From Clostridia bacterium (GTDB lineage Bacteria > Bacillota > Clostridia > Oscillospirales > Acutalibacteraceae): DNA of 43,540 nt. Each line of letters starts with the position of its first letter. Position 1 is the stretch's first letter. Position numbers and translations under genes: made by a program. The notes beneath the pieces are model-generated. The model was not told the origin of the DNA, searched no databases, and saw only the letters and a list, made by a program, of their open reading frames with translations. Location of the stretch: positions 1 to 43,540 of the forward strand of contig JAFSEF010000023.1 of assembly GCA_017435865.1 (NCBI GenBank), in the 5' to 3' direction. Below are positions 16,493 through 20,648 of this stretch, piece after piece.

Positions 16493-17341
16493 TTATTTTT
16501 TTAATTTGCACAACCAGTTTTCAGGAAATGCTATATGGAACAGATTGATATCATCTTTGTATTCTTCAAATAGCGCTTCAACATTCGGTAAAAACTCATT
16601 GTTCCATTTTTCGGCTGACGGATACACTGCTTTCAAAGCAAGAACGGCTCCCCATAATCTCCGTTTTTCACGATCAGGCAAGTCGAATCCTGCAGGGGCG
16701 GCAGAAAAAATCCGATAATACAGTCTTCCGTAATGTGCACAAATATTCCTCAAGTCAGTGCAGCAACGAAGCCAACTGATTGCATTCTCATAGTTCTGTC
16801 CGAATAATATTTTTTTATCTGCTGTTTTTAAATCATTGTAAAAGTATGAGATCATTCCGAACGTAAATAACTCACTTGCTACCCACAACGGAAACTGACC
16901 GTCATAGTTTTCAAGGTGATGTTTTACAAACGGAACCTTGGCATTGTTCTGTATTTCCCTTTGAAGGTTTTCTTCAAATTTTTCAGCATTATGTTTTTCG
17001 TTAAAATTATCAGGTTCTTTGTAGCCGAGCGCACCATACTTCATGGTATGAAAATATGCAAATGAAGAACGCAGGTATATTTCAACAACTTCTATCTGGG
17101 TAAAAAGCAAGGAACGAAGTTTGCGGTCAAATTCATAAATTCTGTAAATTCGATTAAAATCAGTATCGTTTGCAAATGTTCCGCTTGCTGTTTTAAATGG
17201 AAGAAAATATGCCGAAAGCCTGTAATAACCGATTTCGGATAATATTTTCTCACATGCAACTTCATCACGAATCATACATCCGCCATTGCGAAGTTTTTGT
17301 ATCTGACTCTTATAATCAGCAGGTTGTTTTACTTCTTTCAT
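16493..17341 (-). CDS. Abi_2 (AbiD/AbiF-like) HEPN abortive-infection protein
   Basis: This is a 282-residue protein of the Abi_2 family (AbiD/AbiF type), which acts as an abortive-infection or toxin-like factor in phage defence. It shows the family pattern: an N-terminal YKSQIQKLRNGGCMI segment, ILSEIGYYRLSAYFLPF, YEFDRKLRSLLFTQIEVVEIYLRS, and the HEPN RNase motif R-N-x3-H (Arg198, Asn199, His203 in DLRNICAHYGRLYYR). The start is set at ATG 17341 because GGGGA lies just upstream. An ATG 12 bases earlier is also in frame. It directly follows a short structured RNA candidate that ends in a T-run terminator, an arrangement reminiscent of type III toxin-antitoxin loci. RNA cleavage is inferred from the HEPN motif. 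Confidence 0.9.
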   Translation of the reverse strand: MKEVKQPADYKSQIQKLRNGGCMIRDEVACEKILSEIGYYRLSAYFLPFKTASGTFANDTDFNRIYRIYEFDRKLRSLLFTQIEVVEIYLRSSFAYFHTMKYGALGYKEPDNFNEKHNAEKFEENLQREIQNNAKVPFVKHHLENYDGQFPLWVASELFTFGMISYFYNDLKTADKKILFGQNYENAISWLRCCTDLRNICAHYGRLYYRIFSAAPAGFDLPDREKRRLWGAVLALKAVYPSAEKWNNEFLPNVEALFEEYKDDINLFHIAFPENWLCKLKK

Positions 17342-17352
17342 AAAAATCCCCA

Positions 17353-17405
17353 TAAAAAAATGTCTCCCCTGGGACACATCGTTGAGAGGTGCGGGGAGTC
17401 CTGTT
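17353..17405 (-). ncRNA. small structured RNA with possible pseudoknot, upstream of Abi_2
   Basis: From a promoter at 17412-17439 the minus strand would give a transcript of about 50 nt ending in seven T (17360-17354), just before the Abi_2 ribosome-binding site. Segments in order are GGAC (17401-17398), CUCCCC (17398-17393), GUCC (17375-17372) and GGGGAG (17369-17364). GGAC can pair with GUCC and CUCCCC with GGGGAG, an H-type pseudoknot. The 3' part can alternatively fold as an intrinsic terminator. A published RNA motif named abiF sits beside genes of this family; whether this is a member needs a covariance search. Confidence 0.6.
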
Positions 17406-17411
17406 ACTATT

Positions 17412-17439
17412 ATTATATTCATAAATTAAAAAAATGCAA
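17412..17439 (-). promoter_or_regulatory. proximal promoter for small RNA/Abi_2
   Basis: TTGCAT (17439-17434), a 16-base spacer and TATAAT (17417-17412) on the minus strand. The predicted start near 17405 is at the first base of the structured RNA candidate. Confidence 0.7.
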
Positions 17440-17470
17440 CCTTTTTTTGCAAATTTTTATGCCATTTTTT

Positions 17471-17555
17471 GTGACTAAAATACGATACAATCTTATTTTA
17501 GTCACAAAAATGCCCATTGTCAAGGCTAAAATGCGATGCAATCTTATTTTAGCCA
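17471..17555. repeat. twin near-identical palindromes upstream of Abi_2
   Basis: The first palindrome has a perfect 12-bp stem GTGACTAAAATA/TATTTTAGTCAC at 17471-17505. The second, at 17524-17554, has GGCTAAAAT/ATTTTAGCC. The 25-base cores (17476-17500 and 17527-17551) differ at two positions and both contain CAATCTTATTTTA. They are spaced 51 bases start to start. One overlaps the -10 of the distal promoter and the other lies upstream of its -35, so they look like paired operators. Confidence 0.75.
17495..17523 (-). promoter_or_regulatory. distal promoter overlapping the twin palindromes
   Basis: TTGACA (17523-17518), a 17-base spacer and TAAAAT (17500-17495) on the minus strand. The -10 is inside the first palindrome arm. 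This could drive a longer Abi_2 leader under repression by whatever binds the palindromes. Confidence 0.7.
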
Positions 17556-17936: not shown

Positions 17937-17965
17937 TTGACTTTAGGGAATATGTTACCTAAAAT
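17937..17965 (+). promoter_or_regulatory. promoter of BspA-like LRR gene
   Basis: TTGACT at 17937-17942, a 17-base spacer and TAAAAT at 17960-17965, followed by AAGGAGG and the start at 18000. Confidence 0.75.
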
Positions 17966-17999
17966 AATTATTATAATGTCCTTAAGGAGGAATTGTATT

Positions 18000-20648
18000 T
18001 TGAAAAACACAATGAAAAAACTGTTGTTTTTGTTTCTGTTGATAGCACTGCTGTTCGCGGTGGCAACAACTGCAAATGCGGAAACAACTGCAGACGGTCT
18101 GGAGTATTTTGTGAACGATAACGAAGTAACCATCTCCGATTACACAGGCAACGCAACGGATCTCAACATTCCGGCTGAAATTGACGGTTTACCAGTGACT
18201 TCCATCGGCGAATATGCGTTTGGAGATTGCGTAAGCCTTACAGACATCACCATCCCGGACAGCGTAACTTCCATCAGCGATTATGCGTTTTTTTATTGCT
18301 ACAGCCTTACAGACATTACCATTCCGAACAGTGTGAGAAGCATCGGTGAATATGCGTTTTGTTGTTGCCGTAGCCTTACAAGCATCACCATCCCGGATAG
18401 CGTGACTTCCATCGGTGAGCGTGCGTTTTATAGATGCGAAAGCCTTATAAGCATCACCATCCTGGACGGTGTGACTTCCATCGGCGAATATGCGTTTGGA
18501 GATTGCGTAAGCCTTACAGGCATCACCATCCCGGACAGTGTGACTTCAATCAGCGTTCTTGCGTTTTATAGATGCCTCAGCCTTACAAGCATCACCATCC
18601 CGGACAGCGTGATTTCCATCGGCGATGGTGCTTTCTTAGCTTGCGAAAGCCTTGTAAGTATCACCATCCCGGACAGCGTGACTTCTATCGGCTATGCTGT
18701 GTTTGCATATTGCGACAGCCTTGTAAGCATCACAGTGGATGAGAATAATGCATACTACAGCAGTGATGAATACGGGGTTTTGTTCAACAAAGATAATACA
18801 ACGCTGATTCAATATCCTGCCGGCAAGGAAAAAACAAGTTATACCATCCCGGACAGTGTGACTTCTATTGGTGAATATGCGTTTGCAGGATGCCACAGAC
18901 TTACAAGCATCACCATTTCGGACAGTGTAACTTCCATCGGCAAAAATGCGTTCAGAGATTGCGAAAGCCTTACAAGCATCACCATCCCGGACAGTGTAAC
19001 TTCCATCGACCATAATGCGTTTGCAGATTGCGTAAGCCTTGTAAGCATCACCATTCTCAATCCGGATTGTGAGATTTATGATGATGAAGACACCATTTCC
19101 GATACAGCTACTATTTATGGCCATGTCGGCTCTACCGCACAATCTTATGCCAAAGAATACGACCGTACGTTTTTGGAAACCTCTATGGTTGCTTTCGGCA
19201 CCTGTGGAGATTCACTCACATGGATGCTTGACACTGACGGCATCCTCACCATTGCCGGCACAGGAGAGATGGATGATTATGAATATGCCGAGTCTCCGTG
19301 GCATGTATACAAAAATGAAATCATAACTGTAATGATAGAAAACGGTGTGACTTCTATTGGTGAATATGCGTTTGCAGAATTCTACAGCCTTACAAGCATC
19401 ACCATCCCGGACAGTGTGACTTCCATCGGATTTGCTGCGATCGGAGCTTGCGAAAGCCTTATAAGTATCACCATCCCGGACAGCGTGACTTGCATCGGCG
19501 ACGGTGCGTTTGTACTTTGTGAAAGCCTTATAAGCATCACCATCCCGGACAGTGTGACTTCCATCGGCTATTCTGCGTTCGGATCTTGCTACAGCCTTAC
19601 AAACATCACCATCCCGGACAGCGTGACTTCTATCGGCGAGCTGGCATTTATAGAGTGCAACAATCTTGCAAGCATCACAGTGGATGAGAATAATGCATAC
19701 TACTGCAGTGATGAATACGGGGTTTTGTTCAACAAAGACAAAACAACGCTGATTCAATATCCTGCCGGCAAGGAAAAAACAAGTTATACCATCCCGGACA
19801 GTGTGACTTCCATCGGCTATGCTGCGTTTGCATATTGCGGCAGCCTTGTAAGCATCACCATCCCGGATAGTGTAACTTCCATCGGCGATGCTGCTTTCGG
19901 AGTTTGCGAAAGTCTTATAAACATCACCATCCCGGACAATGTGACTTCTATCGGCGAATATGCGTTTGGAGATTGCTACAACCTTACAAGCATCACCATT
20001 CTCAATCCGACTTGTGAGATTTATGATGCTGAAGACACCATTTCCGATACAGCCACTATTTATGGCCATGTCGGCTCTACCGCACAATCTTATGCCGAAA
20101 GGTACGGTCGTACATTTGTGCCGCTTGTACCGCCCCACAGTCATTCTTTCACTGCATCTGTCACCACCCCCGCTACCCACACAGCAACCGGTGTAATGAC
20201 TTACACTTGCTCCTGCGGTGACTCTTACACAGAAGTCATTGAAAAGACCGCGGATCACAGTTATACTGCATCCGTTACCACCCCTGCCACCCACACAGCA
20301 ACCGGTTTGATGACTTACACCTGCTCCTGCGGCGACACTTACACAGAAGTCATAGCAAAAACCACCAAACACACCTACACTTCCGCTGTGCTTGAAGAAC
20401 CGGATTGTCTGAACGCCGGCAAAAAGTTGTACACTTGTGAATGCGGTGACAGTTATATCGAAACCCTCCCCGCATTGGGTCATGTTGACAAGGATGGCAA
20501 CGCAAGTTGTGACCGCTGCGGTACCACGGTCTGCGATCACCTTTGCCACAAAGACGGCATCCTTGGTTTCTTCTGGAAGATTATCAGAATTTTTCAGAAA
20601 CTCTTCGGCATGAATCCCGTCTGTGAATGCGGTGCAGCTCACTATTAA
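18000..20648 (+). CDS. secreted BspA-like leucine-rich repeat protein with Cys-rich C-terminal tail, TTG start
   Basis: This is an 882-residue surface/secreted protein. A signal peptide (MKNTMKKLLFLFLLIALLFA, cleavage near TANA-ET) is followed by two blocks of 23-residue LRR_5 repeats of the type ITIPDSVTSIGEYAFGDC. Each block contains a VDENNAYY...YPAGKEKTSY island and ends in ILNPxCEIYD...YGHVGSTAQSYA. Between the blocks is a cap motif, LTWMLDTDGILTIAGTGEMD. Two copies of a Cys-rich unit (ATHTATGxMTYTCSCGDSYTEVI) follow, then HVDKDGNASCDRCG. The last 38 residues are CDHLCHK..GFFWKIIRIFQKLFG..CECGAAHY, nearly matching the tail of the protein at 43082. BspA-like proteins commonly bind host or microbial surfaces. 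The TTG at 18000 is placed by AAGGAGG nine bases upstream; an ATG at 18012 is the alternative. Confidence 0.9.
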   Translation: MKNTMKKLLFLFLLIALLFAVATTANAETTADGLEYFVNDNEVTISDYTGNATDLNIPAEIDGLPVTSIGEYAFGDCVSLTDITIPDSVTSISDYAFFYCYSLTDITIPNSVRSIGEYAFCCCRSLTSITIPDSVTSIGERAFYRCESLISITILDGVTSIGEYAFGDCVSLTGITIPDSVTSISVLAFYRCLSLTSITIPDSVISIGDGAFLACESLVSITIPDSVTSIGYAVFAYCDSLVSITVDENNAYYSSDEYGVLFNKDNTTLIQYPAGKEKTSYTIPDSVTSIGEYAFAGCHRLTSITISDSVTSIGKNAFRDCESLTSITIPDSVTSIDHNAFADCVSLVSITILNPDCEIYDDEDTISDTATIYGHVGSTAQSYAKEYDRTFLETSMVAFGTCGDSLTWMLDTDGILTIAGTGEMDDYEYAESPWHVYKNEIITVMIENGVTSIGEYAFAEFYSLTSITIPDSVTSIGFAAIGACESLISITIPDSVTCIGDGAFVLCESLISITIPDSVTSIGYSAFGSCYSLTNITIPDSVTSIGELAFIECNNLASITVDENNAYYCSDEYGVLFNKDKTTLIQYPAGKEKTSYTIPDSVTSIGYAAFAYCGSLVSITIPDSVTSIGDAAFGVCESLINITIPDNVTSIGEYAFGDCYNLTSITILNPTCEIYDAEDTISDTATIYGHVGSTAQSYAERYGRTFVPLVPPHSHSFTASVTTPATHTATGVMTYTCSCGDSYTEVIEKTADHSYTASVTTPATHTATGLMTYTCSCGDTYTEVIAKTTKHTYTSAVLEEPDCLNAGKKLYTCECGDSYIETLPALGHVDKDGNASCDRCGTTVCDHLCHKDGILGFFWKIIRIFQKLFGMNPVCECGAAHY

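What the first reader, a model, noticed from the sequence alone, without database searches (positions are those of the whole stretch)
17341..17439. Abi_2 (HEPN) gene behind a short RNA that can form a pseudoknot and ends in a terminator
In order on the minus strand there is a promoter, a transcript of about 50 nt with GGAC/GUCC and CUCCCC/GGGGAG pairing as an H-type pseudoknot, a T7 tract, then the Shine-Dalgarno site and ATG of a protein with the HEPN motif RNxxxH. Type III toxin-antitoxin loci such as ToxIN use the same layout of promoter, structured RNA, leaky terminator and toxin gene, but with a different toxin family. A conserved RNA motif named abiF is known beside genes of this family; this may be a member. 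That the RNA restrains the toxin is inference.
Basis: partly seen in the sequence, partly recalled or inferred. Interest (0 to 1): 0.82.

Follow-up and report, generated by a model that had tools for sequence, protein, structure and literature searches.

The report
RNA-leashed toxin; toxin-free phage copies
A gut bacterium carries a defence gene for a likely RNA-cutting toxin behind a 50-letter structured RNA that probably keeps it switched off, and many phages carry look-alike RNAs without the toxin, perhaps to disarm this kind of defence.

Summary
At 17353-17405 (-) a short RNA lies directly ahead of an Abi_2 (AbiD/F, HEPN RNICAH) gene. It has the abiF RNA core and structure but scores 20.6 bits, below Rfam's gathering score of 37. 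In the window and 37 relatives the outer stem covaries; the proposed GGAC/GUCC helix does not. By analogy with C. difficile AbiF-RCd22 and PbAbiF-AbiFr it is most likely a type III-like toxin-antitoxin defence module, a known kind. Rfam misses this RNA subfamily in 20 of 20 close loci tested.

New here: a core-pattern scan of viral contigs gave 120 records; arms are complementary at 81 of 120 places, 75 of them in records without Abi_2. 21 of 23 named phage loci tested carry the RNA and none of those records has Abi_2. Phage copies often abut tRNA genes, lie near terminase genes, or follow a T7-type promoter. My boldest reading: toxin-free antitoxin decoys against AbiD/F defence. Against it: solitary copies are common in bacteria too, and no activity was tested.

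The parts
16493..17341 (-). Abi_2 / AbiD-AbiF family protein, 282 aa, HEPN motif RNICAH (residues 198-203); likely RNase toxin
   Evidence: Pfam Abi_2 170 bits; PADLOC AbiD 304 bits; PDB 8vz6 Abi family protein, E 2.5e-24; motif conservation
17353..17405 (-). abiF-type RNA (predicted transcript body, AACAG... to the T tract); likely RNA antitoxin
   Evidence: start and end inferred from conservation and the -10 spacing, no transcript data
17393..17398 (-). outer stem, 5' strand CUCCCC
   Evidence: covariation, (5 of 6 pairs with changes on both sides in the wide set)
17364..17369 (-). outer stem, 3' strand GGGGAG; also a possible Shine-Dalgarno for the ATG at 17353
17389..17391 (-). inner stem, 5' strand CAC
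   Evidence: A-U to G-C double changes in 21 of 55 countable distinct rows
17375..17377 (-). inner stem, 3' strand GUG
17354..17360 (-). T7 tract, terminator-like (three bases after the stem)
   Evidence: not listed by the terminator scan
17412..17439 (-). promoter of the RNA: TTGCAT-16-TATAAT
   Evidence: a TATAAT-like box lies at a similar distance ahead of AACAG in many relatives, read by eye; not listed by the scan
17351..17353 (-). alternative in-frame start ATG (adds MGIF)
17466..17510 (.). palindrome 1, 21-nt arms, 95% complementary; overlaps the -10 of an upstream promoter-like site
17524..17554 (.). palindrome 2, 14-nt arms, 86% complementary, 51 nt from palindrome 1; abuts the -35 of the upstream promoter-like site
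17495..17523 (-). promoter-like TTGACA-17-TAAAAT between and overlapping the palindromes (11 of 12 consensus bases)
   Evidence: the scan found 6 such sites against a mean of 4.8 in shuffles, so the match alone is no evidence

Best explanation
The locus is an AbiD/F toxin-antitoxin defence module of the type III-like kind. One promoter makes a short folded RNA, most transcripts stop at the T tract, and some read through into the toxin gene. The RNA binds the HEPN protein and keeps its RNase off; stem 1 may also hide the toxin's ribosome-binding site. Upset of RNA supply, for example when a phage shuts off host transcription, would free the toxin. Shown here: gene family, conserved catalytic motif, RNA conserved in place with covarying stems, and module conserved as a unit between two genomes. 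Inferred from characterised relatives: RNA binding, neutralisation, readthrough, trigger. A second, separate inference is that phages carry toxin-free copies of this RNA as decoys.
For: Abi_2 170 bits, AbiD 304 bits, relative of PDB 8vz6, which the review PMC12737573 (passages) gives as the PbAbiF-ncRNA complex. RNxxxH: R, N and H identical in 89 of 89. RNA model R1 hits 82 of 91 relatives' loci (84 matches; 44 of the 53 sources that were not in its training). Of the 83 matches outside the window, 82 end 4-110 nt ahead of the first aligned Abi_2 residue; the exception is a solitary extra copy in L051. Outer stem 97.3% paired with both-side changes in 5 of 6 pairs, inner stem 99.4% paired. Rfam abiF above gathering in 8 of 20 remoter loci. 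Window and L002 share 88-100% DNA identity in every 60-column step from 17560 to 16482, but 25-43% upstream and mostly 57-80% downstream. C. difficile AbiF is toxic and RCd22 neutralises it (PMC12373285, sections read).
Against: No transcript, binding or toxicity data for this locus. Rfam score below gathering. The scan listed neither promoter nor terminator of the RNA. RCd22 has two motifs in about 100 nt; this RNA has one in about 50. 5 of 91 loci show no RNA by either model (L085, L089-L092), although L089 and L090 look RNA-like by eye.
Confidence: 0.85

Rival explanations
1. The RNA acts only in cis, as an attenuator and ribosome-binding-site mask of the toxin mRNA, and does not bind the protein.
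For: Stem 1 and the T tract sit at the start of the gene. In 11 of 37 rows (window + 36 loci; four of them Fibrobacter loci with the same RNA) the first in-frame ATG lies 2-6 nt after the RNA with no other Shine-Dalgarno on the script's list.
Against: Loop and flank letters are conserved far beyond what attenuation needs. Toxin-free copies exist in phages and bacteria. Relatives bind their toxin and act in trans (PMC12373285, sections read).
Confidence: 0.1
2. The reader's H-type pseudoknot (GGAC/GUCC plus CUCCCC/GGGGAG) is the functional fold.
For: Present in the window; 79.6% of cells paired in the close clade, with a double change at one pair in two Brachyspira rows.
Against: In the wide set 23 and 30 of 53 rows break two of its three pairs; covariation no better than shuffles, although cells paired (64.8%) exceed the shuffled mean (59.2%). 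L028 and L033 lack the UCC strand.
Confidence: 0.05
3. The toxin-free phage RNAs serve the phage itself (leader, terminator or tRNA-array spacer), or are debris of decayed Abi_2 loci, and are not anti-defence.
For: They often abut tRNAs or lead late genes. Solitary copies are common in bacteria too: 15 of 28 RNA places in 22 of 291 genomes have no Abi_2 beside them by my HMM, and a Pfam search of the 13 genomes that hold those 15 puts no Abi_2 match near any of them. L128 and L051 keep the RNA beside toxin remnants. Phage sk1, whose DNA was reported (title only) to protect a phage from AbiF, has no credible match.
Against: Both stems and the conserved core are kept in unrelated phages. Arms are complementary in 67 of 104 distinct viral places against 6.6% when re-dealt. 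Two related Aeromonas phages show a compensatory change at the same site.
Confidence: 0.4

Closest known systems
AbiF-RCd22 of C. difficile phi027 prophage (PMC12373285; abstract, results sections 6, 7, 11 and part 1 of the discussion read)
   Same: Abi_2 HEPN toxin, RNA with the abiF motif upstream, one promoter, terminator with readthrough
   Different: RCd22 has two motifs and 98-132 nt and lies in a prophage lysis module; here one motif, about 50 nt, between ordinary chromosomal genes (no prophage search was made), protein matching PADLOC AbiD
PbAbiF-AbiFr (PDB 8VZ6; review PMC12737573 passages read; the primary Cell paper was not read)
   Same: Same protein family (E 2.5e-24); an RNA bound to each subunit
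   Different: Its RNA was not compared here; no structure for this clade
Rfam RF03085 abiF RNA
   Same: Outer stem, inner 3-bp stem, CCUCUCAACGAUG core
   Different: Below gathering: window 20.6 of 37; 0 of 20 close loci tested (of 36 held) reach it
ToxIN type III toxin-antitoxin (layout recalled; PMC5449768 passages read)
   Same: Promoter, structured RNA antitoxin, terminator, RNase toxin
   Different: Unrelated toxin family and RNA; tandem repeats (recalled)
Phage PhiTE pseudo-ToxI (Blower et al. 2011, as described in PMC5449768 passages)
   Same: Phage-borne RNA mimic of a type III antitoxin
   Different: Expanded in escape mutants; the abiF-type copies are resident in public phage genomes of several groups
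abiF sRNA annotated in cyanophage S-CREM1 (PMC9964418 passages read)
   Same: abiF RNA in a lytic phage; no Abi_2 in that record; the paper also counts three phage genomes in Rfam
   Different: No anti-AbiF role stated in the passages read; the present set is wider and includes copies below Rfam's threshold (13 of 20 named loci)

Membership tests
Abi_2 / AbiD-AbiF toxins | Pfam PF07751 above cut-off; PADLOC AbiD/F | tested here: met
Abi_2 / AbiD-AbiF toxins | HEPN RNxxxH catalytic motif conserved | tested here: met
   R, N and H identical in 89 of 89
Abi_2 / AbiD-AbiF toxins | toxic RNase activity | not testable with these tools
   needs expression
Rfam RF03085 abiF RNA | score at or above gathering (37 bits) | tested here: not met
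   20.6 bits; absent from gathering scan
Rfam RF03085 abiF RNA | outer stem, inner stem and CCUCU...AUG core | tested here: met
   alignment
Rfam RF03085 abiF RNA | beside an Abi_2 gene | tested here: met
   window; 82 of 91 sources by R1, 4 of the other 9 by R2
Type III toxin-antitoxin | RNA encoded just upstream of the toxin on the same strand | tested here: met
Type III toxin-antitoxin | leaky intrinsic terminator between RNA and toxin | tested here: inconclusive
   stem plus T7 present; scan did not list it
Type III toxin-antitoxin | RNA binds and neutralises the protein | not testable with these tools
   known for relatives only

The most novel reading that the evidence does not exclude
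Phages of many unrelated groups (SPO1-like Bacillus, T7-like Aeromonas and Rhizobium, T4-like cyanophages, Lactobacillus Tybeckvirinae, Enterococcus and gut phages) carry toxin-free abiF-type RNAs as ready-made RNA inhibitors of AbiD/F defence. They are released either by tRNA processing in phage tRNA arrays or from late-operon and T7-type promoters. This would be a widespread RNA-based anti-defence class matched to the family from which Cas13 is thought to descend.
Probability: 0.5. Interest if true: 0.88.

Novelty: new variant of a known kind. Interest (0 to 1): 0.67.

Why it matters
It puts a branch of the AbiD/F toxin family, from which Cas13 is thought to descend, under a compact abiF-type RNA that Rfam's threshold misses, and it replaces the proposed pseudoknot by a two-stem fold with covariation. 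The toxin-free copies in laboratory-tractable phages (for example the SBSphiJ group on B. subtilis BEST7003) make a clear test possible: whether phages broadly use RNA antitoxin mimics against abortive infection. If true, Abi_2 defence strength would depend on RNA matching between host and phage.

Tried and rejected
Pseudoknot helix: rejected. Local terminator hairpin UGUCCC/GGAGACA next to the T tract: no change on both sides in any pair, not adopted. Palindromes as a dispersed repeat: rejected, only the two copies in the genome at up to 3 mismatches. Palindromes as a general part of these loci: of 12 relatives printed further upstream only L002 shows them, by eye. Phage sk1 decoy: no R1 match at E<=10; best R2 match 11.1 bits, E 0.7 in 28 kb. 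T7 gene 8-9 region as control: best R2 match 9.2 bits, E 0.42 in 4.5 kb, and not in the gap. Caulobacter phage RW: BLAST lead not confirmed by R2; Acinetobacter phage Acj61 only E 0.089. Of the BLAST leads only 23 loci were fetched; the rest are unverified. Weinberg 2017 not held. R2 was trained on matches from 37 of the 120 viral loci and 3 of the 23 named phage loci, and the scan pattern fixes the core, so R2 scores there are not independent; the arm-complementarity test is.

Full report
The gene. On the minus strand 17341-16493 encodes a 282-aa protein, Pfam Abi_2 170.3 bits against a cut-off of 25.6, PADLOC AbiD 304 bits. By sequence it is related to PDB 8vz6, 'Abi family protein', E 2.5e-24, which a review gives as the PbAbiF-ncRNA complex (PMC12737573, passages). 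The HEPN motif RNICAH stands at residue 198; R, N, A and H are identical in 89 of 89 aligned sequences. It is the only Abi_2 match in the window's genome, which is about 85% complete.

The RNA. Rfam at gathering thresholds lists no abiF in the window. With permissive filters RF03085 matches 17363-17398 (-), model positions 1-37 of 37, at 20.6 bits (gathering 37, E 0.32). Related proteins were sought in 84,980 species genomes: 229 stretches confirmed, the best 80 kept. In 150 genomes of the same family 10 had a match, the window's own included. Printed upstream regions show AACAG, a C-rich arm, GCACCUCU, a loop of variable length, GAUGUG, NCCCA, a G-rich arm, GACAU and a T tract ahead of the gene in the close clade. 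Model R1 (built from window, L002-L037 and L083) matches 82 of 91 sources at E<=1 (84 matches, weakest source L071 at 0.17), including 44 of the 53 not used to build it. Of 83 matches outside the window 82 end 4-110 nt ahead of the first aligned Abi_2 residue; the exception is L051:520-568. R2 adds L073, L078, L088 and, weakly, L087 (E 0.0078), and leaves L085 and L089-L092 without a match. Rfam at gathering finds abiF in 0 of 20 close loci (of 36 held) and 8 of 20 remoter loci (of 44 held). So the close clade is a divergent subfamily that Rfam's threshold misses.

The fold. In 31 distinct close rows the outer stem is 97.3% paired with both-side changes in 4 of 6 pairs; the inner stem is 98.9% paired without such a change. 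In 56 distinct rows of the wider set the outer stem is 97.3% paired with both-side changes in 5 of 6 pairs, and the inner stem 99.4% paired with A-U/G-C double changes in 21 rows; the covariation score is 0.491 against 0.180 shuffled, and at most 0.100 when slid. In a 78-row set with viral members it is 0.562 against 0.174. The last two alignments are fitted to the model and so lean towards it; the numbers of pairs and of pair types changed do not exceed shuffles in them. Loops vary in length and many can hold an extra hairpin (by eye).

Layout and dual use of the stem. The RNA's own promoter is TTGCAT-16-TATAAT. In 11 of 37 rows the first in-frame ATG follows the RNA by 2-6 nt and has no other Shine-Dalgarno on the script's list, so the 3' strand of the outer stem would be the ribosome-binding site (four of the 11 are Fibrobacter loci with the same RNA, and L036 looks the same but the script returned no start). 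Window and L002 have such an ATG at +4 nt and a second ATG with its own GGGG. This suggests, as inference, that folding also masks translation.

The module moved or was kept as one unit. Window against L002 (98% identical protein): DNA identity is 88-100% per 60-column step from 17560 to 16482 and 25-43% upstream of it. Downstream it is 87%, then mostly 57-80%, with a few gapped steps below that and two steps of 90-95%. The upstream edge coincides with two tandem palindromes, 51 nt apart, which overlap a second promoter-like site and occur nowhere else in the genome at up to 3 mismatches. They look like operators belonging to the module in these two genomes; that is inference.

Toxin-free copies in viruses. 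A pattern for the core (CRCCTCTYAAYRATGYGNNCC) in viral contigs gave 120 loci, L095-L214, before the scan stopped at its limit. Pfam Abi_2 was searched in the whole records: over the cut-off in 4 of 80 and 2 of 40, so 6 of 120; in 5 of these the gene is next to the RNA, and in L103's record it lies some 22 kb away. One more has a weak broken match; 113 have none at E<=1. Many records are fragments, so absence is not proof. Independent of the pattern, the arms on either side of the core are complementary (at least 5 contiguous Watson-Crick pairs) in 67 of 104 distinct places, against a mean of 6.6% (maximum 16.5%) when arms are re-dealt 1000 times. Without removing duplicates that is 81 of 120 places, 75 of them in records without Abi_2 over the cut-off. 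The other 39 places are weaker, and some may be chance matches to the core. R2 matches 120 of 120 loci at E<=0.1, but pattern and training make that partly circular. PHROGs identify terminase and portal genes in L120, L135 and L146, whose RNAs are close to the window's type (printed).

Named phages. BLAST leads were followed at 23 loci. R2 confirms 21 of 23 at E<=0.0017, of which 3 were in its training. They are Bacillus SBSphiJ7, SBSphiJ, phiNIT1 and P59; Aeromonas PT2, PZL-Ah8 and T7-Ah; Rhizobium Pasto and RHEph21; Lactobacillus P1, Lenus and SA-C12; Enterococcus phiSHEF4 and A40; Synechococcus S-CREM1 and S-SZBM1; Salicola CGphi29; Sulfurimonas SNW-1; Pseudanabaena Pan2; Streptococcus Javan129; and faecal phage MT835513. 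None of the 23 records has an Abi_2 match at E<=1. Rfam at gathering sees abiF in 7 of the 20 loci tested (of 23 held).

Placement in phages. 22 of 120 viral places lie within 200 nt of a same-strand tRNA (random positions 4.1%) and 12 of 120 abut one within 12 nt (random 0.57%). In named phages 7 of 21 end within 5 nt of a tRNA's start. Some, the Lactobacillus phages P1 and SA-C12 among them, lie between the small and large terminase genes; so does phiSHEF4's. In three T7-like Aeromonas phages the outer stem begins 14-17 nt after the last base of a promoter sequence (CCCTGACTATAGGG, 17-19 sites per genome at up to 2 mismatches, none for the reversed control), just ahead of the gene annotated as capsid assembly or scaffold. 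There PT2 and PZL-Ah8 differ by a compensatory change in the outer stem. T7's corresponding gap has no match. This placement suggests release by tRNA processing or strong late promoters; that step is inferred.

How it may work, and limits. PMC12373285 (abstract, sections 6, 7, 11 and part 1 of the discussion read) shows AbiF toxicity and neutralisation by RCd22 in cis and in trans by direct interaction. A phage that supplies such an RNA could keep the toxin off, as pseudo-ToxI does for ToxIN (PMC5449768, passages). Against this: no phage RNA was tested, and whether the hosts of these phages carry AbiD/F was not examined. Solitary copies are common in bacteria too: R2 found 28 places in 22 of 291 genomes of the class, the window included; 13 have Abi_2 beside them and 15 do not by my HMM, and Pfam in the 13 genomes holding those 15 finds Abi_2 over the cut-off in 7 genomes but next to none of the 15. 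One of the 15 lies 20 nt ahead of a RhuM gene; whether they sit in prophages was not tested. L128 and L051 show RNA kept beside toxin remnants. Phage sk1, known to me only from a reference title in PMC12737573, gave no credible match.

Prior art. PMC9964418 (passages) annotates an abiF sRNA in lytic cyanophage S-CREM1 and counts three phage genomes in Rfam; no anti-AbiF role appears in those passages. PMC12165695 (passages) notes AbiD/F with an RNA of unknown function. Ten searches of the open library listed no title or abstract start that describes toxin-free abiF RNAs as decoys; of PMC13096335, which treats phage tRNAs and an anti-ToxIN protein, passages were read. The primary Cell 2025 paper on PbAbiF was not read, and most subscription papers are not in the library.

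Noticed in passing
17465-17555: Two tandem palindromes 51 nt apart around a TTGACA-17-TAAAAT site, unique in the genome and shared with L002; possible operators of the module.
   Followed up: partly
1247-1390: Ribosomal protein L10 leader (RF00557) on the minus strand, 70.6 bits.
   Followed up: no
L051:520-568: Solitary abiF-type RNA followed by a few codons of an Abi_2-like start and a stop: RNA kept, toxin lost.
   Followed up: partly
L128:1628-1857: Window-like RNA in a viral contig followed by an Abi_2 remnant with N- and C-terminal pieces only.
   Followed up: partly
L234:1501-2557: abiF-type RNA about 20 nt ahead of a RhuM-family gene (PF13310, 348 bits) instead of Abi_2.
   Followed up: partly
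L263:1129-1249: In Bacillus phage P59 a skipping-rope RNA (RF02924) directly precedes the abiF-type RNA inside a tRNA array.
   Followed up: no
L063, L155, L180, L187: Two RNA matches in one locus, reminiscent of the two-motif RCd22; the second match in L063 is weak (E 0.4).
   Followed up: no
17937-20648: Long repetitive protein, leucine-rich-repeat-like by eye, next to the module; no family search made.
   Followed up: no
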